Of a stretch of 64,000 bases of DNA, positions 12,092-52,362 are shown piece after piece (within the stretch, counting starts at the first letter, position 1; each line of letters opens with the position of its first letter). A model generated the notes under the pieces. It saw nothing but the letters and a program-made list of their open reading frames with translations, made no database searches and had not been told where the DNA came from. The DNA is from Rhodospirillaceae bacterium. Lineage in GTDB: Bacteria; Pseudomonadota; Alphaproteobacteria; SP197. The translations under genes were made by a program, and so were the position numbers. The stretch spans positions 423,333 through 487,332 of the forward strand of contig PBNE01000002.1 in assembly GCA_002722885.1 (NCBI GenBank). The letters run 5' to 3'.

Positions 12092-12360
12092 GTTCGTTTA
12101 GCTTCAGTCGCCGGCCCTCGCTCCGCTCGGTTGGTTCACGCGGCTCGCACCGCGGGGTCGCAGTCGCTCCCCTCGGCCCCTAGCGGGGCCTCTCGCCAAC
12201 AAACCGTCTGTGATCATTCCGGCAAAAACCTGCGCGGGCGGTGACAGGGAGTTTCGGCGGCAAGAGCGAAGCGGCCGCCGTCCGATGCGACTGCATCGGC
12301 GGGCCGGTGAGGCCCGGAAACCAAGCGTGCGGAGCGCGCCCGGCGACTGAAGGAACAAAA
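12092..12360. repeat. Long palindromic intergenic repeat, copy A
   Basis: About 270 bp between convergent genes. The left end (TTCAGTCGCCGG) and right end (CCGGCGACTGAA) are inverted copies. The inner core shares CTCGGCCCCT-n-GGGGCCTCTCGCC and GACAGGGAGTTTCGGCG with copies at 18989, 48001 and 52134. Short open frames crossing it are not conserved in frame between copies and are not genes. It could form a long hairpin in RNA from either strand. Confidence 0.85.
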
Positions 12361-12385
12361 AGACGAGCAGAGCCAAGGCGACGCC

Positions 12386-13039
12386 TCAGTCGCCGCCCCG
12401 CGGATACACAATCACGCTCAGGAACCGCACCGGCACATCGTACAGGGTTTCGGGGCCGTGGGGGGCGTCGGCGTCGAAGAACAGCGAATCGCCGGGATTC
12501 ATGCGGTAGCTGCGGCCGCCGTGATGGTAGTCCATCGCGCCGCTGACGACATAGAGGAACTCCTGGCCGTCGTGCTGGAACAGCGGGAAGACTTCGGATT
12601 CGTGGGTCAGGGTAATCATGTAGGGTTCGACCGCGACCTGCTTGTGCACGCTATGGCCGAGCAAGGCGTATTGGTGGCCCGCGCGGGTGCCGCGCCGTTC
12701 GATCTTCAGGCCTTCGCCTGATTTCACGTGGCTGGCGTCCCGCTGCTCCTCGAAACGCTGGAAGAGCGCGGTAAACGGCACGTTAAGCGCCACGGCCAGG
12801 CTCTTCAGCGTGGTCAGTGACGGCGAGGTGAGCCCGTTCTCGATCTTCGAGAGCATGCCGTTGGAAAGCCCGGCCAGCGACGCGAGTTCGCCCACGGTCA
12901 TGCCGAGCTTCTTGCGCTGGGCCCGGACCTGGGTGCCGATCGCCGACTCGAGATCACGCTCGTCGTCGTTCACGGCGTGAGGATCCTGACCGAGCCGCTC
13001 GTGGTTGCCGTTACCGCCGGAGCGGGATTGCTGGGTCAT
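12386..13039 (-). CDS. XRE-family regulator with C-terminal cupin domain
   Basis: Transcription factor of 217 aa. A Cro/C1-type helix-turn-helix is at about residues 36-92 (IGTQVRAQRKKLGMTVGELASLAG, then LSNGMLSKIENG), and a cupin_2 domain at about 140-212 (HDGQEFLYVVSGAMDYHHGG, then PGDSLFFDADAPHGPE) that would bind a small ligand. This architecture is common for regulators of amine, polyamine and amino-acid catabolism (PuuR-like). It lies downstream of the cold-shock-like gene on the same strand and converges on the PhyH gene, so it may control the M24/PhyH pair; that is inference. Confidence 0.88.
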   Translation of the reverse strand: MTQQSRSGGNGNHERLGQDPHAVNDDERDLESAIGTQVRAQRKKLGMTVGELASLAGLSNGMLSKIENGLTSPSLTTLKSLAVALNVPFTALFQRFEEQRDASHVKSGEGLKIERRGTRAGHQYALLGHSVHKQVAVEPYMITLTHESEVFPLFQHDGQEFLYVVSGAMDYHHGGRSYRMNPGDSLFFDADAPHGPETLYDVPVRFLSVIVYPRGGD

Positions 13040-13054
13040 GGCCTTCTCCCGGCC

Positions 13055-13276
13055 CTAGAGCGAATCGTCATCGAGGTGACCCGGCGCGATACGATGGGCG
13101 ATCGGGCCGCGATCGTCGCGGCGCACGGTGTAGTGCACGGCCAGCCCGACGCGGACCTCCCCGAGGTCCGGCGTGACCGACTGCCGTGCGCAGAAGACGA
13201 TATCCGGACCGCCATCGAGCGGACGGATGAAGCCGTAGGCCCCGGATTCGCTGAACCAGACGATGTCGCCGTTCAT
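13055..13276 (-). CDS. Divergent cold-shock-domain protein
   Basis: Small nucleic-acid-binding protein of 73 aa, a single OB fold. It begins MNGDIVWFSESGAYGFIRP, matching the CspA pattern in which the YGFI segment is RNP1, and continues with DIVFCA at the RNP2 position, where a typical family member has DVFVH. The replacement of the conserved His by Cys-Ala and the acidic tail make it atypical. Located 15 bases upstream of the XRE gene on the same strand, and divergent from the rimP operon. Confidence 0.75.
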   Translation of the reverse strand: MNGDIVWFSESGAYGFIRPLDGGPDIVFCARQSVTPDLGEVRVGLAVHYTVRRDDRGPIAHRIAPGHLDDDSL

Positions 13277-13379
13277 GGCAGCGTGTTTCGTGCCCCGGTC
13301 CCGTACTTGTCAAGCGCCGTCTGGCCACGGCCTTGCGGACAGGACTCAATCGGCGCCGCGCCAAGGCTGCCGAAAAAAC

Positions 13380-13407
13380 TTGCTCTTGTGCGCTCCATGA
13401 CTAAGAT
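13380..13407 (+). promoter_or_regulatory. Candidate sigma70 promoter for the rimP-nusA operon
   Basis: A -35-like TTGCTC at 13380-13385 and a -10-like TAAGAT at 13402-13407, spaced by 16 bases, lie about 190 bases before rimP. Transcription would start near 13414 and give a short leader that runs into the terminator at 13447. Confidence 0.45.
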
Positions 13408-13446
13408 CGCGCCGCCTTGAAGCTTGGCCTTCCGGGCGTTTCAGGG

Positions 13447-13469
13447 GTGGGCCAACGGCCCACTTTTTT
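13447..13469 (+). terminator. Attenuator-like intrinsic terminator in the rimP leader
   Basis: A perfect seven-base stem (GTGGGCC / GGCCCAC) with a three-base loop is followed by six T. It stands between the candidate promoter and rimP, the place where many proteobacteria have the rimP-leader element. It most likely attenuates the operon and would be read through when antitermination is favoured, giving feedback by NusA. Within the rest of 13277-13594 I see no gene. Confidence 0.75.
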
Positions 13470-13594
13470 GTTTGGGCCACATCATCGGTCCAGTCCGATC
13501 TGTGTTTGGCGCAATGTGTTGTGCGACGCGACATCGGCCGGTGGGCATTCTGACGCCGTTTTCGGCCCGTCACGCGGCGCGGGGGGTGGAGTGA

Positions 13595-14110
13595 ATGGGC
13601 CTGGCCGGCGAGATCGAACGTCTGATCAACCCGACCGTCGAAGCGATGGGGTTCCGGGTGGTGCGGGTCAAGTTGGCCACCCACCCCAGGCGGACCCTGC
13701 AGGTCATGGCCGAGCGAAGCGACGGCGGACCGGTCGTGGTCGACGAGTGCGCCAGGATCAGCCGGGCCGTTTCGGCCCTGCTGGACGTAGAGGACCCGGT
13801 ACCCGGAGCCTATGACCTCGAGGTCAGCTCCACCGGCATCGACCGGCCGCTTGTAAGGCCGGAGGATTTCGACCGTTTCGCCGGTTTCGAGGCGGTCGCA
13901 ACGGTTGATCCGCCGCAGAACGGGCAACGCAAGTTCCGCGGCAAACTGCTGGGCATGGTGGATGGCCGTGTCCGGCTGGAACTGGAGGATGATCGGCAAG
14001 CCGATCTTCCCTTCGACGCCATCCAGGAGTCCAAGCTGGTCCTGACCGACGAGCTTGTTGAAGCGATGACACCGCCGCGCGACAGCGAGGCGGACGAGAA
14101 AACGGAGTAG
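13595..14110 (+). CDS. rimP: Ribosome maturation factor RimP
   Basis: Cytoplasmic assembly factor for the 30S subunit, 171 aa, in its standard place before nusA. The N-terminal domain shows EAMGFRVVRVKLATHPRRTLQVMAE and the DLEVSSTGIDRPLVRPEDFDRF block that is the strongest signature of the family; the C-terminal SH3-like domain follows with FDAIQESKLVL. The acidic tail SEADEKTE is typical for alphaproteobacteria. Six bases separate it from nusA. Expression is probably controlled by the leader terminator at 13447. Confidence 0.95.
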   Translation: MGLAGEIERLINPTVEAMGFRVVRVKLATHPRRTLQVMAERSDGGPVVVDECARISRAVSALLDVEDPVPGAYDLEVSSTGIDRPLVRPEDFDRFAGFEAVATVDPPQNGQRKFRGKLLGMVDGRVRLELEDDRQADLPFDAIQESKLVLTDELVEAMTPPRDSEADEKTE

Positions 14111-14116
14111 GAAGAT

Positions 14117-15727
14117 ATGGCAGCAACGGACGCTGTTGAATCATCGGTGGTTTACCAGGAGCTGATCCAGATCGCGGATGCGGTTGCGCGCGAGAAGGGT
14201 ATCGAGCGCGAAACCGTCGTTGAGGCGATGGAGCAAGCCATCCAGCACGCCGGCAAGCGGAAGTACGGTCTGGAGCTCGATATCCGGGCCGAGATCGACC
14301 GCACGTCGGGTGCCGTAACGCTGCAGCGTTTCATCGAGGTCGTCGAATCCGACGGCGTCGAGGTGCCCGGTGCCCAGCTTTCTATCGAGGACGCACGCCA
14401 AGCCAATCCGATCGCGCAGGTCGGCGACTTCATCGCCGAAGAGCTGCCCCCGATCGAGTTCGGCCGGATCGCCGCACAGACCGCCAAGCAGGTCATCGTG
14501 CAGAAGGTCCGTGAAGCCGAGCGCGAGCGCCAGTACGGTGAATACAAGGACCGCGTGGGCGAGATCATCAACGGTCTGGTCAAGCGTCCCGAGCACGGCA
14601 ACTGGATCATCGATCTTGGCAAGGCCGAAGCCATGCTGCGCCGCGACGACTGCCTGCCGCGCGAGATTCTGCGCCGCGGCGACCGCGTTCGCGCCTATAT
14701 CTACGATGTCCGCCAGGAGCCGCGCGGACCGCAGATTTTCATCAGCCACACCCATCCGCAGTTCATGGCGAAGCTGTTCGCTCAGGAAGTGCCGGAGATT
14801 TATGACGGCATCATCGAGATCAAGGCCGTGGCCCGCGATCCCGGCAGCCGCGCCAAGATCGCCGTCGTGTCCAACGACAGCTCGATCGATCCCGTCGGCG
14901 CCTGCGTTGGCATGCGCGGCAGCCGCGTGCAGGCGGTGGTGTCGGAACTGGGTGGCGAGAAGATCGACATCATTCCCTGGTCGCACGACACCGCGACCTT
15001 CGTGGTGAACGCGCTGCAGCCCGCCGAGGTTGCCAAGGTGGTGATGGACGAGGAAGACCGCCGCATGGAAGTGGTGGTACCCGACGATCAGCTTTCGCTG
15101 GCGATCGGTCGCCGCGGCCAGAACGTGCGTCTGGCCTCTCAGCTTGTCGGCTGGGACATCGACATCATGACCGAGACCGACGAAAGCGAGCGCCGGATCG
15201 AGGAGATGCGACTTAGGAGCGAACACTTCATCGAGGCGCTTGACGTCGACGACGTGCTGGCCCGCCTGCTGGTGACCGAAGGCTTCAGCGAGGCCGACGA
15301 GGTGGCTTACGTACCGGTCGAGGAACTGGCCGGTATCGAAGGTCTCGACGAGGCCATCGCGCAGGAGCTTCAGAGCCGTGCCCTGGGTTATGTCGAGGAA
15401 CGCGATCGCCAAATGGACGAACGCCGGCGCGAGCTCGGCGTCAGCGACGAGCTGGCCGCCATCGAGGTGCTGTCACCCACGATGCTGGTGCAGCTCGGCG
15501 AAAAGGACATCAAAACGCTCGACGACCTGGGCGATCTGGCCGGCGACGAGCTGCTCGAGGACTACCTGCCGGGCAGCTACCTGACGCTGGACGAGGCCAA
15601 CGCCATCATCATGGCCGCCCGAGCCCACTGGTTCGAAGGCGAGGAAGCCGAAGAAACAGAAGCGGAAGACAACGCTGAAGCCGAAACGGACGAGAGCGCC
15701 GCGACCGAGGAGGAAACGGCATCCTGA
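14117..15727 (+). CDS. nusA: Transcription termination/antitermination factor NusA
   Basis: RNA-polymerase-binding elongation factor of 536 aa. Domains in order: N-terminal polymerase-binding domain (about 10-130), S1 domain (about 140-205, around GDRVRAYIYDV), two KH domains (about 210-350, including GACVGMRGSRVQAVVSELGGEKIDII and LAIGRRGQNVRLASQLVGWDIDI), and two C-terminal helix-hairpin-helix repeats (about 360-500) followed by a Glu-rich tail. All parts appear intact. The gene is the core of the operon and is followed eight bases later by the ylxR-like gene. Confidence 0.97.
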   Translation: MAATDAVESSVVYQELIQIADAVAREKGIERETVVEAMEQAIQHAGKRKYGLELDIRAEIDRTSGAVTLQRFIEVVESDGVEVPGAQLSIEDARQANPIAQVGDFIAEELPPIEFGRIAAQTAKQVIVQKVREAERERQYGEYKDRVGEIINGLVKRPEHGNWIIDLGKAEAMLRRDDCLPREILRRGDRVRAYIYDVRQEPRGPQIFISHTHPQFMAKLFAQEVPEIYDGIIEIKAVARDPGSRAKIAVVSNDSSIDPVGACVGMRGSRVQAVVSELGGEKIDIIPWSHDTATFVVNALQPAEVAKVVMDEEDRRMEVVVPDDQLSLAIGRRGQNVRLASQLVGWDIDIMTETDESERRIEEMRLRSEHFIEALDVDDVLARLLVTEGFSEADEVAYVPVEELAGIEGLDEAIAQELQSRALGYVEERDRQMDERRRELGVSDELAAIEVLSPTMLVQLGEKDIKTLDDLGDLAGDELLEDYLPGSYLTLDEANAIIMAARAHWFEGEEAEETEAEDNAEAETDESAATEEETAS

Positions 15728-15735
15728 ACGCGACC

Positions 15736-16341
15736 GTGAGCAGGGACGACGCGCGAGAGGACACCACCGTGAGGCGGTGTCTGGCATCGGGCGAAAGGGC
15801 CGAAAAGGAGACGCTGGTTCGGTTCGTGCTGGCGCCCGACGGCCGTGTCGTGCCCGATCTCGCCGAACGTCTGCCCGGCCGGGGTGCCTGGGTCAGCGCC
15901 TGGCGCGAGGCGGTCGATCAGGTCGTTGCCAACGGGCTGTTTGCGCGCGGCTTCAAGACCCGTGCGCTGGCCGACGCCGATCTCGGCGACACGGTAGAGC
16001 GGCTTCTGGCGACGCGCGTGATGGACACGCTGAGCCTGGCGCGCCGCGCCGGTGAGGCTGTGACGGGGTATGAGAAGTGCCGTGCCATGCTGGCGCGCGG
16101 CGATGCGGTGTTGCTGCATGCCCGCGATGGTTCTATGGACGGCCTCAAGAAGCTTGCTGGGGTTGCGGGTGAGCAGGCGATCCGCCTGTTCGACAGCACC
16201 GAACTCGGTGCGCCCTTCGGGCGTGGCGAGGCCGTCCATGTGGCGCTTACGCCGGGTGGACTGGCCGACAGGATCAAGACGGAATGTTCGCGGCTGGCTG
16301 GATTTCGCAGTCTGGCCGTTGGTGGCAAGGAAGGACGGTAG
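15736..16341 (+). CDS. YlxR (DUF448) RNA-binding protein fused to an L7Ae-like domain
   Basis: 201-aa fusion typical of alphaproteobacterial nusA-infB operons. Residues about 10-90 are the YlxR/DUF448 domain (VRRCLASGERAEKETLVRFV and LPGRGAWVS), which binds RNA and probably RNase P or RNA polymerase. Residues about 95-190 form an L7Ae/L30e-like domain (SLARRAGEAVTGYEKC). The start is a GTG at 15736, eight bases after the nusA stop, in line with family members that begin shortly before VRRC. The stop at 16341 is two bases before infB. Confidence 0.88.
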   Translation: MSRDDAREDTTVRRCLASGERAEKETLVRFVLAPDGRVVPDLAERLPGRGAWVSAWREAVDQVVANGLFARGFKTRALADADLGDTVERLLATRVMDTLSLARRAGEAVTGYEKCRAMLARGDAVLLHARDGSMDGLKKLAGVAGEQAIRLFDSTELGAPFGRGEAVHVALTPGGLADRIKTECSRLAGFRSLAVGGKEGR

Positions 16342-16343
16342 GC

Positions 16344-18974
16344 ATGGCTGGTGACGACGACAGCGACAAAAAGCCCAAGACGCTGAGTCTCAACCGTCCG
16401 AGACTCGAGATCAAAACAACCGTGGACGGCGGACAGGTGCGCCAGAGCTTCAGCCATGGCCGCTCCAAGCAGGTTGCGGTCGAGGTCAAGAAGCGCCGAG
16501 TCATTCGCCCGGGACGTGACGACACCGAGGCTGCGCCCGCCCCGGAACCCGTGGAAGAGGCTGCGCCCGCGTCCGCACCGGAGCCTGTGGCCGAAGCGCC
16601 TGCGCCCAAGCCTGTGGCCGAACCGGTCGACACACCGACCGACGCACGCCCCTCTCTGGTCCTCAAGGACCTCTCGAACGAGGAGCGCGAGGGCCGGGCT
16701 CGTGCCCTGGCCGAGGCCCGCAAGACCGAGGAAGAGGCGCGCAAGCAAGCCGAAATCGATGCCGCGCGCCGAGCCGAGGAAGAGGCACGCGAGGCGGTCG
16801 AACGTGCCGAGGCCGAAAAACGCGCCAATGAAGACGACGCCCGTCGCGAACGCGAAGAAGAAGCCCGCCTGCGCGCCGAAGAGCAGGCCCAGCGCCTGGA
16901 GGGCAAGCAGCGCGATCCCGAAGTCGATCCTGAAGCCATCGCCGCGGCCCAGGCTGCGGCAGCTCAGCCCGCCGCACCGGTGGCCGAGGATGAGGACAAG
17001 AAACGCTCCAAGCGCGACCGTCGTTCGCCGCTGGCGCCCAAGACGCGTCCCAGTGACCGCCGCCGTTCCGGCAAACTGACCATAGCCCAGGCGCTCGCCG
17101 GCGACGATGGCGAGGAACGTGCGCGCAGTCTTGCCGCAGCCAAGCGCGCCCGCGAGAAGTTGCGCCAGCAGCAGGCTGGCCAGCAGCAGAGCGACGGCAG
17201 CTCCAAGAAGTTCGTCCGTGAGGTTGTCGTGCCCGAGGCCATTCTCGTCGGCGAGTTGGCCAACCGCATGGCCGTCCGTGGCGGCGAAGTGGTCAAGAAG
17301 CTCATGCAGATGGGCCAGATGGTCACGATCAATCAGACGATCGATGCCGACACCGCTGAGCTTCTGGTCGAGGAGTTCGGCCACAAGATCCGGCGCGTAT
17401 CCGAATCCGATGTCGAGGTCGGCCTCAAGCAGGATGATGATCCCGATGAAACCAAGAAGCCCCGCGCTCCGGTCGTGACCGTGATGGGCCATGTCGACCA
17501 CGGCAAGACCAGTCTGCTCGATGCCCTGCGCAAGACCGATGTGGTCGCGGGCGAAGCGGGCGGCATTACCCAGCATATCGGCGCCTATCAGGTCGTCCTG
17601 CAGGGTGGCGAACGCATCACCTTCCTCGACACCCCGGGCCATGCCGCTTTCACGGCGATGCGCGCCCGTGGCGCCAGTGTGACCGACATCGTGATCCTGG
17701 TCGTGGCGGCTGATGATTCGGTCATGCCACAGACCAAGGAAGCGATCGATCATGCCCGCGCGGCGGATGTGCCGATCATCGTGGCGATCAACAAGTGCGA
17801 CACCCCCGGTGCCGATCCCGACAAGGTGCGCCAGGACCTGCTTCAGCATGAGCTGGTCGTCGAAGGCATGGGTGGCGACATCCTGGATGTCGAAGTCTCG
17901 GCCCTGAAGGGCGACGGGCTCGACAAGCTGGAAGAAGCCATTCTGCTGCAGGCCGAACTCCTGGAACTGAAGGCCAATCCCGACCGCACCGCTGAGGGTG
18001 TGGTGGTCGAGGCCCGGTTGGAAAAGGGTCGCGGCGCGGTCTCCACCGTGCTGGTCCAGCGCGGCACCCTACATGTTGGTGATACCATGGTCGTGGGCAA
18101 GGAATGGGGCCGCATCCGCGCCCTGATCGACGACCGCGGCAAGAACGTTAAGGAAGCCGGGCCCTCGATCCCAGTCGAGGTGCTGGGCCTGTCCGGCGCG
18201 CCGACGGCCGGCGACGAGTTCTTTGTCGTCGACAACGAGAAGCGTGCGCGCGAGATCGCAGCCTACCGTGACGAGCAGGAGCGCCAGCAGAAGATCACCT
18301 CTGTCGGCTCCAGCACCGTTGAGCAGCTTTTTGCCAACATCGCGGCTGGCGAAACCAAGGAGCTGCCGCTGGTCATCAAAACCGACGTGCACGGCTCGGC
18401 CGAAGCGATCACCCACAGCCTCGAGGATCTCGGCACCGATGAGGTGAAGCCGCGTGTTCTACTGTCGGCCGTGGGTGGCATCAGCGAATCGGATGTCACG
18501 CTGGCCAAGGCATCGAACGCGATCATCTTCGGCTTCAACATTCGCGCCAACAGCCAGGCGCGTCAGCTCGCTGAGAAGGAAGGCGTGGAGATCCGCTACT
18601 ACCGGATCATCTACGAGCTTCTCGACGAGGCCAAAACCATGCTTTCGGGCATGCTGGCGCCGGCGACCGAAGAGAAGGTCCTGGGTGCCGCCCAGGTGCT
18701 CGATACCTTCGAGATCTCCAAGGTCGGCCGCATCGCCGGTTGCCGCATCATGGACGGCCTGGTGCGCCGCACCGCGAAGGTCCGCCTGCTGCGCGACGGC
18801 CACATTCTGTTCGACGGCCACATCAAGTCGCTCAAGCACCACAAGGACGAGGTGCGAGAGATCAAGCAGGGCAGCGAATGCGGCATCCAGCTCGACGGCC
18901 ATCATGACATCGAGATCGGAGACGAGATCGAAGCCTACGAACTGAACGAAATCGCCCGGAGCCTGGACGACTAG
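16344..18974 (+). CDS. infB: Translation initiation factor IF-2
   Basis: GTPase that places initiator tRNA on the 30S subunit, 876 aa. The start ATG 16344 ([10 protein letters not shown]) lies two bases after the ylxR stop with AAGGACGG in front; family members begin with this MS/MT-D-D-K-K-x-L-x-L pattern. Residues about 60-290 are a charged Ala/Glu/Arg-rich linker, then IF2N ([20 protein letters not shown]). The G domain starts at about 380 with [17 protein letters not shown] and NKCD motifs, followed by domains II-IV with the C-terminal fMet-tRNA-binding domain. Intact. The repeat element at 18989 separates it from rbfA. Confidence 0.97.
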
Positions 18975-18988
18975 CGGTTTTGTTTGTT

Positions 18989-19323
18989 TAGCCTCCATCG
19001 CCGGCCTTCGCGTCTTTTGTTTTTTTCTTGTTCCCTTGGACACCGGGCGCGGGCGTTTGTCGTTTCGTTAGCCTCAGTCGCCGGCGTTCCCTCCGGTCAC
19101 TTGGCTTCCGCCGCTTTCGCGGCGGGGTCGCAGTCGCTCCCCTCGGCCCCTTACGGGGCCTCTCGCCTGCAAGACGTTGGTGTTCGCTCCAATGGACACC
19201 GGTGCAGACGGCGACAGGGAGTTTCGGCGCCGCGCATGCGGCGGAAGCCAAGTGACCGGAGGGAACGCCGGCGTCTGAGGGAACAAACAAAAACAAACGG
19301 AGCGAAGGCCGGCGCTTGAGGCT
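18989..19323. repeat. Long palindromic intergenic repeat, copy B (nested)
   Basis: About 335 bp between infB and rbfA, which are otherwise operon neighbours. The outer arms (start TAGCCTCCATCGCCGGCC, end GGCCGGCGCTTGAGGCTA) enclose a second palindrome whose 43-base arms at 19072-19114 and 19238-19280 match at 42 of 43 positions. The inner core carries the same GGCCCC-TTAC-GGGGCC hairpin and GACAGGGAGTTTCGGCG as copies A, C and D. It looks like one element inserted in, or grown inside, another. Apparent open frames inside are frame-shuffled and not genes. Confidence 0.88.
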
Positions 19324-19346
19324 AGAGATAGATAGAGAACCACCCG

Positions 19347-19724
19347 ATGTCCAAGAAGAGAAATACCAACACCACCCGTAGCCAGCGCCAGCTCAGGGTC
19401 GGCGAGGAAATCCGGCACGTGCTGTCGGAAATGTTCACCCGCGGCGAGGTTCACGACAGCGCGCTTTCGGGCAAGGTCATTACCGTGTCCGAGGTTCGTA
19501 TGAGCCCCGACCTGCGCCACGCAACCTGTTTCGTGATGCCGTTGGGCGGCGAGGACCTCGAGGAGGTGCTCGAAGGTCTGAAGCGCGCCGCACCCTATCT
19601 GCGCGGTGAGGTCGGACGGCGCGTCCAGCTACGGCTGACTCCGGAACTGGCCTTCAAGGCCGACCCGGGCTTCGATCACGCCGAACGCATCAGCACCCTG
19701 CTGCGGGACGCTGACGGCCGCTGA
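19347..19724 (+). CDS. rbfA: Ribosome-binding factor A
   Basis: Late 30S maturation factor and cold-shock protein of 125 aa, a single KH-like domain. RQLRVGEEIRHVLSEMFTRGEV at the N-terminus, ITVSEVRMSPDLRHATCFVMPLGG in the middle and LRGEVGRRVQLRLTPELAFKADPGFDHAERISTLL at the end fit the family, including the conserved PEL-F pattern. It is seven bases upstream of truB. Transcripts from infB must cross the palindromic repeat B to reach it, so it may have reduced read-through or its own promoter. Confidence 0.95.
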   Translation: MSKKRNTNTTRSQRQLRVGEEIRHVLSEMFTRGEVHDSALSGKVITVSEVRMSPDLRHATCFVMPLGGEDLEEVLEGLKRAAPYLRGEVGRRVQLRLTPELAFKADPGFDHAERISTLLRDADGR

Positions 19725-19731
19725 CCGGACC

Positions 19732-20637: not shown

Positions 20638-20644
20638 GATCCCG

Positions 20645-43604: not shown

Positions 43605-43639
43605 GCGGAGTCTCGTGAAGGCGGATGTGCCTGCCTTCT

Positions 43640-43701: not shown

Positions 43702-43713
43702 ACATCAAAGAGT

Positions 43714-44635: not shown

Positions 44636-44707
44636 TGGTCCAATGTCATCAAAGATGACATAATATTCAAAAGAGGTACGGGACCCTTCAAGATGAGGAG
44701 CCACGCC

Positions 44708-45052
44708 ATGAGTGACAAGCCCATGACGGACGAGGAAAAGCGCAAGGCCGATGTCGCGCGCCTGCGCGCCGCCGCGCGTTCGACCACGCCCGAGGCCTAC
44801 CGCACGCCCGAGACCCGCATCACCGCCAATCCCATGACCGAGGCGGGCAACTCCTACAACACCCTGTTCGGCGCCTATTTCGCGGGGTCGACCGGCTGGC
44901 GCCAGCATCTAGCGACCGCCATGCAGCTCGGCGCCTATGGCCTGGCCTATCTCGTGCTGATCCTGCTGCTGAACATCGCCCAGTGCGAGTGGTGGTACGA
45001 ACCCGGCATGTATTCCAACCCGGATCGCTACGGCAACACCGGCGGACGCTGA
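44708..45052 (+). CDS. Hypothetical single-pass membrane protein
   Basis: 114 aa from ATG 44708 (MSDKPMTDEEKRKADVARL). The first half is charged and probably cytoplasmic; a single hydrophobic helix (YGLAYLVLILLLNIAQC) lies at about residues 78-97, followed by a short tail rich in Trp, Tyr and Asn (WWYEPGMYSNPDRYGN). Good spacing from a GAGGAG. I do not recognise the family. It is divergent from htpX, whose lost start codon lies 73 bases away. The same strand continues with the HyuA-like gene after 73 bases. Confidence 0.6.
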   Translation: MSDKPMTDEEKRKADVARLRAAARSTTPEAYRTPETRITANPMTEAGNSYNTLFGAYFAGSTGWRQHLATAMQLGAYGLAYLVLILLLNIAQCEWWYEPGMYSNPDRYGNTGGR

Positions 45053-45125
45053 TCACACGCCTCCGCGGGTGACACGTCAGTCCATTCCGCTTTAGGCTGC
45101 CGCCAAAGCACAGTGGGGGCAGATC

Positions 45126-47144
45126 ATGCGTGTGGGTGTTGAGGTCGGCGGGACGTTCACGGACCTGGTGGCGATCGACGAATCCGGAGCCATCACCGTG
45201 GCGAAGGTGCCGTCCGTGCCCTCGGCTCCCGATGAGGGCGCGTTCAACGCGCTGGTCGCTTCAGGTGTCTCCATCGCAGAGATCGAGGACCTGGCCCACG
45301 GCTCCACCATCGCGACCAACGCGGTGCTCGAACGCAAGGGTGCCAGGGTCGCCTTTGTCACGACCCAGGGCTTCCGCGACATCCTCATCATGCAACGTCA
45401 TTCGCGCAGCCGCGTCTACGACCTGACTTACCAGAAGCCCGAGCCGGTGGTGAAACGGCGCGACAGCTTCGAGGTCGCCGAGCGTATGCTGGCCGACGGC
45501 AGCGTGCTCGATGCGCTCGATGCGCAAGCAGTCGAGCGGGATCTGATTCCAAAGCTGAAAGCGGGCGACTACGAGGCCGTGGCGATCTGCCTTTTGAACG
45601 GCTACGTCAATCCTGCCCACGAAGAGGAGCTGGCGGCCATCATCACGCGCCACTGCCAGGGCCTGCAGGTCGCCTGCTCTTCGGGCGTGACCCGCGAGTT
45701 CCGGGAATACGAACGGGCCTCAACCACCACGCTGTCGGCCTATGTACAGCCGGTGATCAACCGCTATCTCGAACGCTTCCAGGACCGGCTGACCGGTTCG
45801 GGTTTCACAGGCCGGTTCTCGGTGATGCAGTCGAACGGCGGACGACTGCCCGCCGAAGGCATGCGGCGCAATGCCATCACCGCGCTCCTGAGTGGTCCCG
45901 CCGCCGGCGTGATGGGTGCGGTGCGCCAGGCGGCGCGTTCGGGTCACGGCAATCTCGTGACCTTCGACATGGGCGGCACCTCGACCGATGTCTGCCTGGT
46001 GACCGAGGGCAAGCCGGACCTCACTGCCGAGTTCGCCCTCGACGGCCTGCCGATCCGGACTCCGATCATAGACATCAACACAGTCGGTGCGGGCGGCGGG
46101 TCGATCATCTGGATCGACGACGGCGGCATGCTGCGCGCCGGACCGCAGAGCGCGGGTGCTGATCCCGGTCCGGCCTGTTATGGCCGCGGCGGCGCCGAGC
46201 CCACGGTGACCGACGCCCATGTCATTCGCCGCACGCTGCGCCCGGATGCCTTCCTGGGCGGGCGCATGGAGATCGATGTTGCGTCAGCGGAAGCCGCGTT
46301 CCGTCCCCTGGCCGAGACGCTGGGCATGAGCCTGGAAGAAATCGCCGATGCGGCGATCCGCGTGGCCGACGCCAACATCGTGCGCGCTATGCAGATCATC
46401 TCGACCGAACGCGGCAAGGACCCGCGCGACTATGCCATGGTTTCCTTCGGCGGCGCCGGACCCCTGCACGCTGCGCGCGTGGCCGAGGACCTAGGGGTCA
46501 ACACGATCATCGTGCCGCCCAACGCGGGCGTGCTATCGGCCTATGGCCTCCTTGCCGCCGACTACCAGCAGTTCGATTCCACGACACGGAAGATGCGCCT
46601 TGGCGATGACACACCGGCGGCCGTGCGCAAGGTCTTCGAGGAGATGCGCAAGCGTGCGGTCGAACGGTTCGTTCTGATGGGCCTGGGCAACCAACCCCGG
46701 CTGACCTTCATCGCCGACATGCGTTTTGTCGGCCAGGCCTTTGAAGTCGCGGTGGAGCTTGATGTCGGCGGTCTTGAAAGCCTGACCAGCGAAGCCCTGC
46801 GCACCGCCTTTGCCGACGAGCATCACCGTGTCTTCATGCACGGCGGCGATGCCTCGAACCCGATCGAGATCGTCGCCTTCCGGTTGGGTGTGGCAGCCCC
46901 CCTGGAGCACATTCCCGCCCTGCGCGAAGACAGCGACGGCGACCCTGCCCCGATGATCGCCTGGCCGATGTACGAACACGGCGCTAGCCATCAGGGCACC
47001 AGCGGCCACCGCGCTTCACTCAGTCAGGGCGAGTCCCTCGCAGGCCCGGCGTTGCTGGAAGACAGCACGTCGACCATCTCCATCCCCCAGGGCTGGACCG
47101 CCGCCATCGACGACCACCACAACCTGATTCTGACGCGGGGCTAG
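45126..47144 (+). CDS. Hydantoinase/oxoprolinase HyuA-type subunit
   Basis: 672-aa ASKHA-fold subunit A of ATP-dependent N-methylhydantoinase / 5-oxoprolinase-type enzymes. The N-terminal phosphate-1 motif VEVGGTFTDLVAIDESGA, the phosphate-2 motif FDMGGTSTDVCLV and GAGGGSIIWID are conserved. These enzymes open cyclic amides such as hydantoins or 5-oxoproline with ATP, or carboxylate acetone-type compounds. The B subunit usually follows immediately; here two HyuB-like genes occur 3.3 and 5.3 kb downstream. The C-terminal tail ends in IPQGWTAAIDDHHNLILTRG, typical of the A chain. Confidence 0.9.
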   Translation: MRVGVEVGGTFTDLVAIDESGAITVAKVPSVPSAPDEGAFNALVASGVSIAEIEDLAHGSTIATNAVLERKGARVAFVTTQGFRDILIMQRHSRSRVYDLTYQKPEPVVKRRDSFEVAERMLADGSVLDALDAQAVERDLIPKLKAGDYEAVAICLLNGYVNPAHEEELAAIITRHCQGLQVACSSGVTREFREYERASTTTLSAYVQPVINRYLERFQDRLTGSGFTGRFSVMQSNGGRLPAEGMRRNAITALLSGPAAGVMGAVRQAARSGHGNLVTFDMGGTSTDVCLVTEGKPDLTAEFALDGLPIRTPIIDINTVGAGGGSIIWIDDGGMLRAGPQSAGADPGPACYGRGGAEPTVTDAHVIRRTLRPDAFLGGRMEIDVASAEAAFRPLAETLGMSLEEIADAAIRVADANIVRAMQIISTERGKDPRDYAMVSFGGAGPLHAARVAEDLGVNTIIVPPNAGVLSAYGLLAADYQQFDSTTRKMRLGDDTPAAVRKVFEEMRKRAVERFVLMGLGNQPRLTFIADMRFVGQAFEVAVELDVGGLESLTSEALRTAFADEHHRVFMHGGDASNPIEIVAFRLGVAAPLEHIPALREDSDGDPAPMIAWPMYEHGASHQGTSGHRASLSQGESLAGPALLEDSTSTISIPQGWTAAIDDHHNLILTRG

Positions 47145-47154
47145 ACCCTCACCG

Positions 47155-47928
47155 TCAGCCGTGCGCGGCGATGAACCGGCGGATGTGGCCAGCGACCTCT
47201 TCGGCGGCTTCCTTCAGGATCGAATGTTTGAGGTCCTTCAGGATGACCAGCTCGCTGGTCGGCAGCAGGCTGTCGATGATGGCGTTCAGGCGCGGGTTGC
47301 AGCCGCCATCGAACTCGCCGGTCAGGACCAGGCTGGGCGCCATGATCTGGTGCAGCCAGGGCGCCATCTCGGTCGCGGCATAAACCCGGAAGACCGCGAG
47401 GAAAACCTCGTCGGGCGTGGTCAGCACCTCGTCGAGCCGGGCCTGTACGAGATCGGGATTGGCCTTCAGGAAATCATCGGTGAACCAGCGATCGACCAGG
47501 GTGTCGAGGATGTTGGGAATACCCTTTTCCTCCATCGCCGTGATCACGCCCTTCACCTTGGCCGCATCCTCATGGGTGCGGCCTGCCGCCGTCGAAAGCA
47601 GGCCCAAGGTCAGGACGCGGTCGGGATGGGTACGGGCGTAGGCCGGGGCGATCATGCCGCCGAGCGAATGGCCCACGACATGGGCCTTTTCGATCCCGAG
47701 CTTCGCGCGCAGGGCTTCGAGGTCCTCGACCAGTTCGTCGAGCGAATAGGGCACCGGCGGCACCGGTGATTCACCGTGACCGCGCTGGTCATAGCGGATG
47801 CAGGTAAAGTCATCCTCCAGGAACGCGATGATGTCGTCCCAGCCGGACCGCCGACCTCCGATCCCATGGGCAAAGAAGATCGCCGGGCCGGACCCGGTCA
47901 CGGTGTAGTCGACGTCGATGGCGGCCAT
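47155..47928 (-). CDS. Alpha/beta hydrolase
   Basis: 257-aa serine hydrolase. FFAHGIGGRRSGWDD holds the oxyanion-hole HG, VVGHSLGGMIAP the nucleophile Ser, GEFDGGCNP the acid Asp and LKHSILKEAA the His. The start MAAIDVDYTVTG at 47928 has AAGGGGGA in front; an open stretch further upstream runs through the palindromic repeat C and is not coding. It converges on the HyuA-like gene with a ten-base gap. Substrate unknown; possibly a hydrolase or dehalogenase-like enzyme for ester bonds. Confidence 0.88.
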   Translation of the reverse strand: MAAIDVDYTVTGSGPAIFFAHGIGGRRSGWDDIIAFLEDDFTCIRYDQRGHGESPVPPVPYSLDELVEDLEALRAKLGIEKAHVVGHSLGGMIAPAYARTHPDRVLTLGLLSTAAGRTHEDAAKVKGVITAMEEKGIPNILDTLVDRWFTDDFLKANPDLVQARLDEVLTTPDEVFLAVFRVYAATEMAPWLHQIMAPSLVLTGEFDGGCNPRLNAIIDSLLPTSELVILKDLKHSILKEAAEEVAGHIRRFIAAHG

Positions 47929-48000
47929 GGTGTTCCCCCTTGTTGTGATGGTGTCGGGACTTTCGGGTGATTGCGATTTCAGAGCAAGCCGCCGTTTTAT

Positions 48001-48213
48001 CTGTTCCCTCAGTCGCCGTGCGCTCACTCCGCTCGGTTGGCTTACGCCGCGGCCGCTCCCCTCGGCCCCTTGCAGGGGCCTCTCGCCTACAAAACGTCGG
48101 TGTTCGCCCCAACGAACACTGGTGAAGACGGTGACAGGGAGTTTCGGCGCCGCGCATGCGGCGGAAGCCAACCGAGCGGAGTGAGCGCCCAGCGACTGGG
48201 GCTAACAAACAAA
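48001..48213. repeat. Long palindromic intergenic repeat, copy C
   Basis: About 213 bp between two minus-strand genes. Its 44-base arms (48007-48050 and 48158-48201) pair at 40 positions. Where copy B has CGTTCCCTCCGGTCACTTGG, copy C has CGCTCACTCCGCTCGGTTGG, and its right arm carries the matching changes. The core contains GGCCCCTTGCAGGGGCC and GACAGGGAGTTTCGGCGC. Confidence 0.9.
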
Positions 48214-48232
48214 GCAGGCCGGCACTGCCAAT

Positions 48233-49285
48233 TCAGGACATCTCGGCAGCCACAGCAATCTTCGCATCTCTAAATCGCGGCATCACGTCCGCCGCGAACC
48301 GTTCCATCGAGTCCATCACGTCCTGATGGCTGGGAATGCCCAGGTGCATGTCGAGCGCGATCTCGTCCATGCCGAGTTCGGCATAGGCGCCGATCTTGTC
48401 GATGATCTCGTCCTTGGTGCCGACGATCAGCTGTTTCATGGCGTCTTCGAAGCCGTAATCGACCTCGATGATTTCGAGCTCGCCTTTGCTCACCGTGCCC
48501 GGGGTCTCGAAGCCGTTGGTGAAGCGCAGGCCGTACTCGTAGACCACCTTGCCCTTCTCGCGCGCGTCCGCCTCATCGGTGGCGACATAGGCCGAGCGCA
48601 GCATCGACATCCTGGGCCGTGTGCCGGCGCGCTCCAGCGCCTCATCGGCGCCGCGATGGAAGGCCTCCATCTGCTTGACCGCGAGATCGAAGCCGCCGCG
48701 CAGCGGCGTGGTCTGCACGTCATAACCTTTCCGCGCGGTGTGATAGATCGCCTCCGGCCCCAGGGCCGCGATCCAGAGTTTTGGGCGGCGCGGCGAGCGC
48801 GGCATCACGGTGATCGGCCCGAAATTGTAGTGCTTGCCTTCCCAGGAGACGTCCTCGCCATCAAACAGCGCTTCGAGCACCGCGAGCGATTCGTCGAACT
48901 TCTCGCGCGTGTCGGCGGGATCGATGCCCATGCGCTCCATCTCGTAGGCAAAGGCACCGCGGCCGATGCCGAGTTCGACCCGGCCGTTCGACAGGATGTT
49001 GGCCAGCATGCACTGGCCCGCAAAGCGGCGCATGTCGTGGAACGGCAGAACGATCACGGCTGTCGAGACCGGAAGCCGTTCGGTCGCGTTGGCGACATGC
49101 AGTGCCAGCATCAGCGGGTCCGGGTTCATCAGGATGTTGACGAAGTGATGTTCGGGCACCGACAGCGCGTCGTAGTCCAGCGCCTCGGCATGGCGCGCCT
49201 GTTCGATCAGGTCGGCGTAGAGCTGCGTGTGGCTGCGTGAGTCGGAGAAATGATGGCAACTGAGGAAAACGTTGAAGGTGGTCAT
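48233..49285 (-). CDS. LLM-class flavin-dependent oxidoreductase
   Basis: 350-aa bacterial-luciferase-like monooxygenase. Blocks: NVFLSCHHFSDSRSHTQLYADLIEQARHAEALDYDALSVPEHHF at the N-terminus, LPFHDMRRFAGQCMLANILSNGRVELGIGRG (flavin-binding Gly-rich segment), and PKLWIAALGPEAIYHTARKGYDVQTTP. The cofactor FMNH2 or F420 cannot be told from sequence. The family oxidises aldehydes, sulfonates or amines. It lies downstream of the TetR gene (67-base gap) on the same strand, so the regulator may control it. Confidence 0.88.
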   Translation of the reverse strand: MTTFNVFLSCHHFSDSRSHTQLYADLIEQARHAEALDYDALSVPEHHFVNILMNPDPLMLALHVANATERLPVSTAVIVLPFHDMRRFAGQCMLANILSNGRVELGIGRGAFAYEMERMGIDPADTREKFDESLAVLEALFDGEDVSWEGKHYNFGPITVMPRSPRRPKLWIAALGPEAIYHTARKGYDVQTTPLRGGFDLAVKQMEAFHRGADEALERAGTRPRMSMLRSAYVATDEADAREKGKVVYEYGLRFTNGFETPGTVSKGELEIIEVDYGFEDAMKQLIVGTKDEIIDKIGAYAELGMDEIALDMHLGIPSHQDVMDSMERFAADVMPRFRDAKIAVAAEMS

Positions 49286-49352
49286 GGCAAATCATCCCTG
49301 GGGACGAACAACCGACTCCTAATCCTTATTATACGACCGCACAACAGAGAAG

Positions 49353-49973
49353 TTATCGGTCGGCTAAACTCGGCAGCGAACGACCGAGCAGGCGGTGGCA
49401 TTCGCCGAGCGCACGGCGCACCGAAAACAGCTTCGGCTCCAGGCACATCTGAAGCCACAGTCCGTCGAGCAGGGCCGTCAGGGCACGTGCCTCCGCACGG
49501 GCATCGACGTCGACACCATCGGCGCAGGCGACCTCGGCGATGACTCTGGCAATGTCCCGGCGGTAGTCGCCATAGAGCTTCTTGTGCATGGCAGCGATCG
49601 CCGGGTTGCGTGGCACAAGATCCCAAAAAGCGAGCTGCACGCGGCGGCGTTCCGGGGCAGCCAGCGGCGGCCGAAGGCTGGCTTCGATCGCGCCCGACAA
49701 CCGCGCGGCCGGGCCAAGGTCGGAACGGCCGATCATACCGCGCGTGGCCTGTTCGAGTTCCAGGACCTGAGCGCGGTAGGTCTCGGCCATCAGGTTGTCC
49801 TTGCTGCCGAAGTGATGGCGAAGAAGGCCCTGGCTCACGCCGGCCTCCTCGCAGATGCGGCGCACGGACGCGCCCTCGACCCCGTCACGCGCCATGCAGC
49901 GGCGCGTGGCGTCGATCAGCGCCTGGCGGCGGACATCGGGGTCTTCCCGGGTGAAGCGGGGCGTGCGGGCCAT
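49353..49973 (-). CDS. TetR-family repressor, BetI-like
   Basis: 206-aa regulator. The N-terminal helix-turn-helix (RRQALIDATRRCMARDGVEGASVRRICEEAGVSQGLLRHHFGSKDNLMAETYRA) and the BetI-like C-terminal ligand domain (LTALLDGLWLQMCLEPKLFSVRRALGECHRLLGRSL) are clear. BetI-type repressors respond to choline or related amines. It lies upstream of the LLM gene on the same strand, opposite to the HyuB gene to the right. Confidence 0.88.
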   Translation of the reverse strand: MARTPRFTREDPDVRRQALIDATRRCMARDGVEGASVRRICEEAGVSQGLLRHHFGSKDNLMAETYRAQVLELEQATRGMIGRSDLGPAARLSGAIEASLRPPLAAPERRRVQLAFWDLVPRNPAIAAMHKKLYGDYRRDIARVIAEVACADGVDVDARAEARALTALLDGLWLQMCLEPKLFSVRRALGECHRLLGRSLPSLADR

Positions 49974-50020
49974 CGCCCATGGCTACGCCGCCTGATGCAT
50001 CAGGACAAGTCGTGACATGA

Positions 50021-50055
50021 AAAGGGGCGCCCGGCGCTGCAGCCGGGTGCCCTTG
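50021..50055 (-). terminator. Intrinsic terminator on the minus strand
   Basis: AAGGGCACCCGGC pairs with GCCGGGCGCCCCTT (one extra base) and on the minus strand ends in CCCCTTTTC. It lies 110 bases downstream of the small frame at 50165 and just upstream of the TetR gene, so it would end a transcript from that small frame. Confidence 0.65.
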
Positions 50056-50164
50056 TTTCAGCCAGAGACGGAATCTTCAGATCGAGAGCATCGCGTCAGT
50101 GCGATAGGTCGCAGATGGCCGACGCCGGCGGACAAATCATTGTGCTCGGATAACCGTCACAGGT

Positions 50165-50281
50165 CTAGTTCGTCGAGGCGGCCTCGCTGTCCTGTGGCGC
50201 GATGTCGGTGAGTTCGCCGTTGCAAAGGCTGTCGACGGGCAACAACGATGTGCCAACAAGATCAGAAAGCGTGGTGTTCAT
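50165..50281 (-). CDS. Candidate small protein, 38 aa
   Basis: The frame reads MNTTLSDLVGTSLLPVDSLC and then a hydrophilic tail with TDIAPQDSEAA, ending at TAG. No similarity to a family I know. Support: a terminator 110 bases downstream in the right direction, a weak TTGGCT-n17-TAGGGT promoter-like pair and the inverted repeat GACTT-GAG-AAGTC just before the ATG. Against: no clear Shine-Dalgarno sequence and unremarkable codon choice. Listed as a candidate only. Confidence 0.3.
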   Translation of the reverse strand: MNTTLSDLVGTSLLPVDSLCNGELTDIAPQDSEAASTN

Positions 50282-50485
50282 ATCTTGGACTTCTCAAGTC
50301 AACGTGCGAAACCCTACAAACTAGCCCGGCTTGAGCCAAGACACGAGCAACGGTGAGCAGCCTGGTTTCTGTGCGACCCATCACTCACGGGCAGGTTTGG
50401 CGGCAGGACCCGCTTCGGGATACGGCGTGGTTGTCCACGCTCTCGCTAAACGCCAGAATGGCCGCGCTGCTAGGGGACCATGATC
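50282..50485. other. Gene-free stretch upstream of the first HyuB-like gene
   Basis: Between the small minus-strand frame and the HyuB gene I see no gene, only the GACTT-GAG-AAGTC inverted repeat near 50288-50300. The promoter of the HyuB gene should lie within this stretch, but no strong -35/-10 pair is evident. Confidence 0.5.
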
Positions 50486-52126
50486 ATGACTCTCGATCCC
50501 GTCGATTACGCCGTTATCAGCCAGGGTATCCTCGCCGCCGCGCGCGAGATGGGCTCCAAGCTGGTACGTTCCGCCTACTCTACCGTGGTGCGCGAGGCGG
50601 CCGATGCGTCGGCCGGGCTGATGGATGCGCAGGGCCGCATCGTGGCCCAGGCCGAGATGATCCCGATGCAGCTGGGATCGATGACAGCGACTTGGGCGGC
50701 CTGCGCCGCACATCATCCGGTCGAAACGCTGGAAGAGGGCGATTTCTATATCTGCAACGACCCCTTCGAGGGTGGTCAGCACATCCCCGATGTCTTCATC
50801 TTCCAGCCGATCTTCTTCGAGGGCCGCCTGCTTGGTTTCGCCGCCTCGGTCGCCCATCACCTGGAGATGGGCGGCGCGGCGGCCGGGATCGTGGCCGATG
50901 CCAGCGATGTCTATCAGGAGGGCCTGCGCCTGCCGCCCTCGCGCTGGAACCTTGAACGTGACTGGTACGGCGGCCCGCTGCAGCGGCTGATTGCCAAGAA
51001 CATCCGCGTCCCCCAGCTCACCATCGGTGATTTAAACGCCCAGTTTGCCGCGGGCAGCGTTGGTGCTGGACGACTGAAACAGCTTGCCGAAAAGTACGGT
51101 GGCGACACAGTCGAGGCCACCATGGCCGAGCTCATCGCCTATTCCGAGCGGCGGGTCCGCGCCGCCATCGCCGCGGTCCCCGACGGCACCTGGCACGGCG
51201 AAGACAACATCGACGACGACGGACTCACCGATGAGCCCCGTACCATCAGGGTCGCTCTGACGATCAAGGGCGACACCATCCACTGCGACTTCACCGGCAC
51301 CAGCGAGCAGGTGGCGCGCAATCTCAACAGCCCGCTCAGTTCGACCTTCTCAGCCACCTTCACGCCGATCAAGGCCGCGCTGACCAGCACCGATATTCCT
51401 TTCAACCACGGCAGCACCCGTGCCGTGACGCTCGACGTGCCCTACGGTTCGATCCTCAATCCGAAGCCGCCCGCGCCGGTCCACGCCCGCATGCTGGTCT
51501 GCTACCGCACCTTCAACGCCGTGATGAAGGCATTGAGCCAGGCGGTGCCCGAAAAGGTGATCGCTTGCGGCTACGACACCACCACAGCCCTTTATCTCTC
51601 CCACTTCGACGACGACCGGTACCGCGTGATCGCCGAGGTGCTGGGCGGAGGCTATGGCGCGGGCCATAGAAACGACGGGGTCAGTGCGGTGGGCGGACCG
51701 CTGGCCAACTGCACCAACACACCGGTCGAAGTGCTCGATCTCGACTACGACTTCTTCCGCATGCACGAGTACTCCCTGCGGCCCGACAGCGGCGGCGGCG
51801 GCCGCCAACGGGGCGGTCTGGGTTATGTGCGCGCCTACGAGATCCTCAAGCCCGGCGCCTCTCTTTCAATGTACGCGGATCGTTTCAAGCTGGCACCCGA
51901 AGGCCTCTTCGGCGGTCAGGAGGGCAAACGCGCCCGCTGCACCGTCGAACGCGGCGGCGAAATCATCGACATCCCCAGCAAAGGCGGCCTGGCGCTGGAA
52001 CCCGGCGATATCCTCACTATCATGACCGGCGGCGGTGCAGGTTACGGTGATCCCGAAGAGCGGGACCCGACTGCTATCGCCGCTGACCTGGCGGATGGTT
52101 TCATCACGCGGGCGGCAGCGGAGTAA
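50486..52126 (+). CDS. Hydantoinase/oxoprolinase HyuB-type subunit, copy 1
   Basis: 546-aa subunit B of ATP-dependent hydantoinase/oxoprolinase/acetone carboxylase-type enzymes. Family features: DPVDYAVISQGILAAAREMGSKLVRSAYSTVVREAADASAGLMDAQG, GDFYICNDPFEGGQHIPDVFIFQPIF, FAASVAHHLEMGG. The ATG at 50486 lies nine bases after AGGGGA, in line with the start of copy 2; the ATG at 50480 would be too close. It has no A subunit adjacent; the HyuA-like protein 3.3 kb upstream is the obvious partner. Repeat D follows its stop codon. Confidence 0.92.
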   Translation: MTLDPVDYAVISQGILAAAREMGSKLVRSAYSTVVREAADASAGLMDAQGRIVAQAEMIPMQLGSMTATWAACAAHHPVETLEEGDFYICNDPFEGGQHIPDVFIFQPIFFEGRLLGFAASVAHHLEMGGAAAGIVADASDVYQEGLRLPPSRWNLERDWYGGPLQRLIAKNIRVPQLTIGDLNAQFAAGSVGAGRLKQLAEKYGGDTVEATMAELIAYSERRVRAAIAAVPDGTWHGEDNIDDDGLTDEPRTIRVALTIKGDTIHCDFTGTSEQVARNLNSPLSSTFSATFTPIKAALTSTDIPFNHGSTRAVTLDVPYGSILNPKPPAPVHARMLVCYRTFNAVMKALSQAVPEKVIACGYDTTTALYLSHFDDDRYRVIAEVLGGGYGAGHRNDGVSAVGGPLANCTNTPVEVLDLDYDFFRMHEYSLRPDSGGGGRQRGGLGYVRAYEILKPGASLSMYADRFKLAPEGLFGGQEGKRARCTVERGGEIIDIPSKGGLALEPGDILTIMTGGGAGYGDPEERDPTAIAADLADGFITRAAAE

Positions 52127-52133
52127 GGGGTTG

Positions 52134-52362
52134 GTTGTTCTTTAGCCTCAGACGCCAGCCCTCGCTCCGCTCGGCCCCTTACGGGGCCTCTCGCCTACAG
52201 AACGTCCATGTTCGCTCCTGTCGACACCGGCGCAGACAGCGACAGGGAGTCTCGGCGGCGTACAGCGAAGCGGCCGCCGACCGGCGCGACTGCGCCGGCA
52301 GGCGATCAGGCCCGGAAGCCAAGCGAATGGAGTTCGCGCCCGGCGCTTGAGGGAACAACGAA
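52134..52362. repeat. Long palindromic intergenic repeat, copy D
   Basis: About 229 bp between two HyuB-like genes. The ends are inverted (left: TAGCCTCAGACGCC; right: GGCGCTTGAGGGAACAA). The left arm is shorter than in copies A-C: it jumps from CTCCGCTCGG straight to the CCCCTTACGGGGCC hairpin. The core GACAGGGAGTCTCGGCGGCG is conserved. Confidence 0.85.

What the first reader, a model, noticed from the sequence alone, without database searches (positions are those of the whole stretch)
12092..52362. Family of long palindromic repeats with compensated arm differences
Four intergenic copies (12092-12360, 18989-19323, 48001-48213, 52134-52362) share a common core, CTCGGCCCC-n-GGGGCCTCTCGCC and GACAGGGAGTTTCGGCG, flanked by long inverted arms. 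Copy B reads CGTTCCCTCCGGTCACTTGG in the left arm, copy C CGCTCACTCCGCTCGGTTGG; all five differences are matched by complementary changes in the right arms. Such pairwise change suggests selection for a hairpin, or copying of one arm from the other. The copies carry no conserved frame.
Basis: seen in the sequence. Interest (0 to 1): 0.8.

Follow-up and report, generated by a model that had tools for sequence, protein, structure and literature searches.

The report
Mobile three-hairpin repeats, inverted pairs
The four repeats are copies of a probably mobile, multi-hairpin DNA element that recurs in many alphaproteobacterial families; the matched changes come from small hairpins inside each arm rather than from one arm pairing with the other.

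Summary
The four copies are real. Each is built from a ~73-nt half-unit that reads outward and folds into three consecutive hairpins (hp4, hp5, arm), paired as an inverted dimer. The conserved pairing lies inside each half-unit: 15 of 19 base pairs show changes on both sides, 0 of 500 shuffles reach the observed score. In hp4 and arm the middle pairs switch between Watson-Crick and tandem G·A, almost only on the outward strand. A covariance model matches 36 of 385 genomes of the class, in 20 families, with 89 matches in Niveispirillum; no Rfam match covers it. Opposite presence and absence at two gene junctions and identical 3-bp flanks in 12 of 21 TACCA-ended copies argue for mobility. PF01797 (RAYT) is absent from 10 of 10 genus genomes. 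Best reading: a new REP/MITE-like family, probably recognised as a folded single strand.

The parts
12092..12365 (+). Copy A, inverted dimer of half-units, between PhyH (11261-12085 +) and a cupin regulator (12386-13039 -); arms not matched to each other
12101..12172 (-). Copy A left half-unit (hp4-hp5-arm, read outward)
   Evidence: R1 match G000:C2:435433-435504 -, E 4.3e-12
12282..12353 (+). Copy A right half-unit
   Evidence: R1 match G000:C2:435614-435685 +, E 5.4e-13
19065..19290 (+). Copy B, inverted dimer with matched arms, between infB and rbfA; lacks the GAGCGAAGC hairpin part
19071..19142 (-). Copy B left half-unit
   Evidence: R1 match, E 1.9e-14
19199..19281 (+). Copy B right half-unit
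   Evidence: R1 match, E 1.9e-10
18989..19024 (+). Outer left half-arm around copy B (stops near the apex of an arm hairpin)
   Evidence: inverted repeat I5, 86% complementary
19289..19324 (-). Outer right half-arm around copy B
   Evidence: inverted repeat I5
47999..48213 (+). Copy C, compact inverted dimer with matched arms; lacks the GAGCGAAGC hairpin part
48006..48066 (-). Copy C left half-unit, shortened
   Evidence: R1 match, E 1.5e-4
48129..48202 (+). Copy C right half-unit
   Evidence: R1 match, E 1.1e-7
52136..52365 (+). Copy D, left half reduced and fused to the core, between two Hydantoinase_B genes
52281..52353 (+). Copy D right half-unit
   Evidence: R1 match, E 4.1e-13

Best explanation
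The repeats are non-autonomous mobile elements of REP/MITE style. The shared module is a ~73-nt half-unit of three hairpins ending in GCCCGGCGNNTGAGG or GCCGGCGNNTGAGG. In the window's genus two half-units stand back to back as an inverted dimer, each reading outward, with a variable spacer between them. In loci of other families that I inspected the module mostly stands alone, in part of them between TACCA...TGGTA ends. A trans-acting enzyme (not identified) most likely recognises the outward strand as a folded single strand, probably DNA, and moves or copies it. Copies settle in intergenic DNA, often just downstream of a gene, and are rare between divergent genes. Pairing inside each hairpin is maintained by that recognition; arm-to-arm complementarity is a by-product of dimerisation with occasional homogenisation. 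Shown: the family, the covariation, the strand-specific tandem G·A, presence and absence between species, identical 3-bp flanks in part of the TACCA-ended copies. Inferred: single-strand recognition, DNA rather than RNA, the enzyme, and that the presence differences are gains.
For: Covariation in the genus: 69 half-units from five genomes, 84.9% of cells paired against 69.5% shuffled, 202 cells changed on both sides against 83.5, at most 53 when slid. Wider set of 42 matches (26 from other genera, 16 from the own genus; 40 distinct): 170 against 55.2, slid at most 29 (this alignment is fitted to the model). Arm hairpins: 388 Watson-Crick cells at pairs 1, 2, 5, 6 in 108 arms with a TCC loop (of 126 arm contexts) against a permuted mean of 283 and maximum of 313 in 5000. 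Strand: G·A 59 against T·C 2 in hp4, 88 against 2 in arm. Mobility: between infB and rbfA a model match is present in own, G005 and G009 and absent in the other 7 of 10 genus genomes; between PhyH and cupin it is present in own and G002, absent in G005 with a 26-bp gap, the opposite state for G002 and G005. TACCA-ended copies: 12 of 21 carry identical flanking triplets, 3.5 expected by re-pairing. Orientation, 80 hits with both neighbours called: convergent 29, tandem sense 25, tandem antisense 21, divergent 5.
Against: No transposase was tied to it. Energy folding gives little support to the G·A form of the arm: 23-nt pieces do not form it as DNA or RNA; as isolated 15-mers two of three G·A forms fold weakly as RNA on the outward strand (-0.2, -0.4 kcal/mol), none on the complement. 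The excess of G·T over A·C holds for the genus arm (22:6) but not for hp4 (6:6), hp5 (4:7) or the wider set (hp4 5:3, hp5 4:5, arm 3:2). The shuffles do not correct for relatedness. The flanking triplets come from the 21 of 91 hits that show both ends, the best of possible end pairs was taken, some copies are near-identical, and no target duplication was established for the window's own copies. No bias to the replication strand in Niveispirillum (19:18 and 15:11 in the two arcs, my count on the list).
Confidence: 0.62

Rival explanations
1. The half-unit is a structured RNA, acting in 3' untranslated regions or as a small RNA (mRNA 3' stability, attenuation), and spreads as such.
For: Strong covariation; hits lie mostly downstream of genes: upstream neighbour in sense 54 of 80, p=0.002.
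Against: Among tandem genes the half-unit is sense 25, antisense 21, so no transcription polarity is seen (heuristic gene calls). In dimers the two halves fold on opposite strands. No Rfam match. Presence differs between species of one genus.
Confidence: 0.22
2. One reading: the two long arms of one copy pair with each other (long hairpin or cruciform), or one arm is copied from the other.
For: B, C and the C4 copy have identical arms (p=0.03 in the own genome). One of the 5 differences between the strain duplicate C16 and the window (position 19108) lies in the left arm of B; there the window base is complementary to the right arm and that of C16 is not.
Against: 45 copies: within-copy arm identity equals the permuted value (p=0.48); identical arms in 1 of 40 copies outside the own genome. 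The tandem T·C / G·A mismatch persists in most arms, which simple correction within the hairpin would remove.
Confidence: 0.07
3. Classical REP/BIME/REPIN elements mobilised by a RAYT (Y1 HUH transposase).
For: Inverted doublets, intergenic, imperfect hairpins with a conserved tandem mismatch, strand specificity; similar traits are described for REPINs and E. coli REPs (passages of PMC3116915 and PMC8266576).
Against: PF01797 found in 0 of 10 genus genomes while the same search rings in 5 of 14 control genomes. No GTAG or CGTC in the consensus. The unit is 73 nt with three hairpins, not 20-40 bp.
Confidence: 0.07
4. Chance resemblance of GC-rich palindromes.
For: The sequences are GC-rich; E-values of R1 are rough because of short calibration.
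Against: 0 of 500 shuffles, slid controls far lower; 349 of 385 class genomes give no match at E<=0.001 (at most 12 candidates scored per genome, stricter filters); long constant stretches AAGCCAAG and GCCCGGCGNNTGAGG across families.
Confidence: 0.01

Closest known systems
REPINs / BIMEs (REP doublets with RAYT)
   Same: Inverted doublets in intergenic DNA, compensatory changes in the hairpin, many copies, variable spacer; strand-specific imperfect hairpins (PMC3116915, PMC8266576, passages seen)
   Different: 73-nt three-hairpin unit, no GTAG tag, no PF01797 in the genus, tandem G·A that switches to Watson-Crick pairs
CGTC-tagged REPs of alphaproteobacteria
   Same: Mostly alphaproteobacterial, REPs mostly downstream of genes, dimers, apparently no dedicated transposase (PMC3733652, abstract and passages seen)
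   Different: No CGTC tag or CCA tail in the half-unit consensus; a repeat with CGTC start and CCA tail sits inside the spacer of some G009 copies instead
Bacterial MITEs
   Same: Short, non-coding; TACCA/TGGTA ends and identical 3-bp flanks in part of the solitary copies
   Different: The internal three-hairpin module is conserved and covaries across families although the ends differ (TACCA/TGGTA; TTTAGCC; TTGTTCCC)
RIME / ABC mosaic elements of rhizobia (recalled)
   Same: Mosaic palindromic intergenic elements of alphaproteobacteria (recalled)
   Different: One genus copy has no blastn match outside Niveispirillum in the plasmid collection; no RIME sequence was compared directly

Membership tests
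REP/BIME/REPIN with RAYT | A Y1 (RAYT) transposase gene in the genome | tested here: not met
   PF01797: 0 of 10 genus genomes, 2 of 17 genomes searched in all
REP/BIME/REPIN with RAYT | GTAG tag at the foot of the hairpin | tested here: not met
   no GTAG in the consensus of A1, by inspection
REP/BIME/REPIN with RAYT | Inverted doublets | tested here: met
   genus copies; also L335, L336, L341 and G611; elsewhere often solitary
CGTC REPs | CGTC tag and CCA tail | tested here: not met
   inspection of the A1 consensus; definition from PMC3733652 passages
MITE | Terminal repeats with target-site duplication | tested here: inconclusive
   12 of 21 TACCA-ended copies outside the genus have identical 3-bp flanks; not established for the window copies
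MITE | A parent transposase with the same ends | not tested
   no search by ends was made
Structured RNA family in Rfam | Match to a described family | tested here: not met
   window at gathering score: 0 matches; 20 loci at E<=0.1: 3 matches, none on the repeat
Structured RNA | Transcript from the element | not testable with these tools
   no expression data
RIME/ABC elements | Sequence similarity | tested here: inconclusive
   indirect only: blastn of one genus copy against plasmids matched only Niveispirillum

The most novel reading that the evidence does not exclude
A class-wide folded module, not tied to one transposon, that is carried between different mobile ends (TACCA/TGGTA solitary; TTTAGCC or TTGTTCCC dimers) and is recognised as a single strand with three hairpins, two of which use an interchangeable tandem G·A / Watson-Crick switch: a single-strand recognition code comparable in role to integron attC sites, served by an unknown enzyme that is not a RAYT.
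Probability: 0.25. Interest if true: 0.8.

Novelty: new variant of a known kind. Interest (0 to 1): 0.6.

Why it matters
CGTC REPs, the short palindromic repeats that predominate in alphaproteobacteria, apparently lack a dedicated transposase (PMC3733652, abstract). Here is a larger, defined module with a covariance model, a preferred strand and a named host with 89 matches, so the question of what moves such repeats becomes testable. It also shows that matched changes between the arms of a palindrome can mislead: the conserved pairing was inside each arm.

Tried and rejected
Arm-to-arm pairing as a rule: rejected by permutation. RAYT: PF01797 absent from the genus. Rfam: nothing on the repeat. 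Replication-strand bias in Niveispirillum: strands cluster locally (runs p=0.02, best-arc p=0.055), but in the two arcs that I drew by eye from GGGNAGGG counts they are 19:18 and 15:11. First gene calls by ORF length alone were unreliable (sense 33, antisense 23 of 56, p=0.23) and were replaced by codon-scored calls trained on window genes. Folding single arms by energy gave little. The plasmid record of Niveispirillum holds no annotation at the hit. The phylum search gave 13 of 398 genomes, own included, all of the same class; how many of the 398 lie outside the class is not shown. Literature searches listed no paper that I recognised as describing this repeat; beyond abstracts I saw passages of five papers; the library lacks most subscription journals.

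Rows dropped: of 55 harvested dimers 45 had a clean 15-mer in both arms (window A and D are among the 10 dropped; copy B was represented by its strain duplicate L002). A1 holds 69 of the 70 half-units that a similarity filter kept (one poor row left out). Of 114 model matches were used for orientation and ends; dropped were own-genus loci, some weak matches and some array repeats. 80 of the 91 had both neighbours called, 21 of the 91 showed both ends. At the PhyH-cupin site seven genus genomes were fetched and three have both genes together; G007-G009 were not among those searched. An earlier count said six genomes behind A1; the rows come from five.
Full report
What is there. The four copies lie at the stated coordinates and share the stated core. 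B and C have long matched arms. A has arms of different sequence; D's left half lacks part of the arm, hp5 and hp4. B is nested inside an outer pair of half-arms that stop near the apex of the arm hairpin. The genome (3.71 Mb, 23 contigs) holds further copies and, by a model of the half-unit, 27 matches at E<=0.01, 7 of them in the window (150 of 5014 candidates scored). It is a draft with some redundancy: contig C16 repeats the infB-rbfA region with 5 differences in 2679 bases.

Relatives. With a G002 copy as query the genus gives 52, 96 and 82 aligned pieces in G002, G005 and G009, 25 in own, 6 in G003, 5 in G008 and no match in the other 4 of 10. By equal contig lengths three of these genomes correspond to records that a pattern scan named: CALSLK01, CALIUG01 and JABIUG01, uncultured alphaproteobacterial assemblies.

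The arms. I harvested 55 distinct dimers. For 45 with a clean 15-base variable block in both arms, arms of one copy agree at 10.73 of 15 positions, arms re-paired within genomes at 10.71 (p=0.48). In the own genome 3 of 5 copies have identical arms (p=0.03); elsewhere 1 of 40. The block is itself a hairpin, six pairs around TCC: among 108 arms with that loop (of 126 arm contexts), pairs 1, 2, 5 and 6 are Watson-Crick in 388 cells, against a permuted mean of 283 and a maximum of 313 in 5000.

The half-unit. Reading outward from the centre, both halves show the same order: hp4 (centre GCGACNGC), hp5, AAGCCAAG, the arm hairpin with GGA loop, then CGCCCGGCG or CGCCGGCG and NNTGAGG. On 69 half-units from five genomes, 15 of 19 pairs have changes on both sides, 202 cells against 83.5 shuffled; slid structures give at most 53. 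The counts do not correct for relatedness. In hp4 and in the arm the two middle pairs are mostly either Watson-Crick or tandem G·A: 59 G·A against 2 T·C in hp4, 88 against 2 in the arm. The complementary strand would carry T·C mismatches, so I read the outward strand as the one that folds. G·T exceeds A·C in the genus arm (22:6, p=0.004) but not in hp4 (6:6), hp5 (4:7) or the wider set. That a GNA loop and tandem sheared G·A are stable in DNA is recalled, not tested; ViennaRNA gives the G·A form little or no support.

Distribution. The model R1 matches 36 of 385 class genomes in 20 families, own included (at most 12 candidates scored per genome). G188 is Niveispirillum cyanobacteriorum by a 100% match to its plasmid record and has 89 matches at E<=0.001. 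In the loci outside the genus that I inspected the module mostly stands alone, in part of them framed by one more hairpin on either side and by TACCA...TGGTA. Tandem arrays occur. Outward inverted dimers also occur in another family (G611) and in three IMG/VR contigs. No Rfam match covers the module.

Mobility. The infB-rbfA junction carries an element in own, G005 and G009; in the other seven genus genomes the gap between the gene matches is 40 bp or less and there is no model match. The PhyH-cupin junction carries one in own and G002 and is empty in G005; in four further genus genomes PhyH was not found beside the cupin gene, and three were not examined. G002 and G005 thus show opposite states at the two sites, which favours repeated gain over one shared loss. 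In 21 copies outside the genus with both ends visible (of 91 hits), 12 have identical flanking triplets: TAA, TGA, TAG or TTA, each a stop codon on one strand; re-pairing gives 3.5. A reduced set without near-copies gives 10 of 18 (p=1.1e-4). Taking the best of several possible end pairs biases this upward.

Genes around it. By codon-scored gene calls, 80 hits outside the genus with both neighbours split into 29 convergent, 25 tandem sense, 21 tandem antisense and 5 divergent. The element is rare between divergent genes, and in tandem arrangement it shows no preference for the transcribed strand. This, and the opposite strands of the two halves in dimers, speaks for a DNA-level role rather than one RNA, without excluding RNA.

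Mechanism. I think a trans-acting enzyme recognises the folded outward strand and moves or copies the element, as TnpA-REP does with REPs (PMC8266576, passages) but by another enzyme, since PF01797 was not found in the genus. E. coli REPs also carry a conserved tandem mismatch that matters for activity and are read on one strand only, and REPINs show compensatory changes in their long hairpin. Membership in the RAYT-REP family is not claimed: two defining features were tested and not met.

Verdict. A new family of REP/MITE-like elements with an unusual three-hairpin module found in 20 families of the class.

Noticed in passing
window 50480-52126 and 52417-54117: Two Hydantoinase_B genes in tandem (repeat stretches 70-75% identical, spacing 1964), with copy D between them.
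   Followed up: partly
window 6205-7230 and 7323-8426, minus strand: Tandem pair of fatty acid hydroxylase genes.
   Followed up: partly
G000 contig C16, locus L002: Near-identical duplicate of the infB-rbfA region (5 differences in 2679), suggesting strain redundancy in the draft; one difference lies in the left arm of copy B.
   Followed up: partly
L083 and L084 (G009), spacer of the element: A repeat beginning CGTC and ending in CCA, resembling CGTC REPs, sits inside the spacer; a GTCATCCCGG-type palindrome sits in some G005 spacers and one G002 spacer.
   Followed up: no
L254, L252, L334: Tandem arrays of the half-unit with periods of about 115, 100 and 108 bases.
   Followed up: no
L335, L336, L341 (IMG/VR contigs): Inverted dimers beside the end of what looks, by eye, like the same gene in three viral-labelled contigs.
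   Followed up: no
L046, L051-L053, L055: Half-arms that end at the CTCCG apex flank these copies on both sides, giving concentric palindromes.
   Followed up: partly
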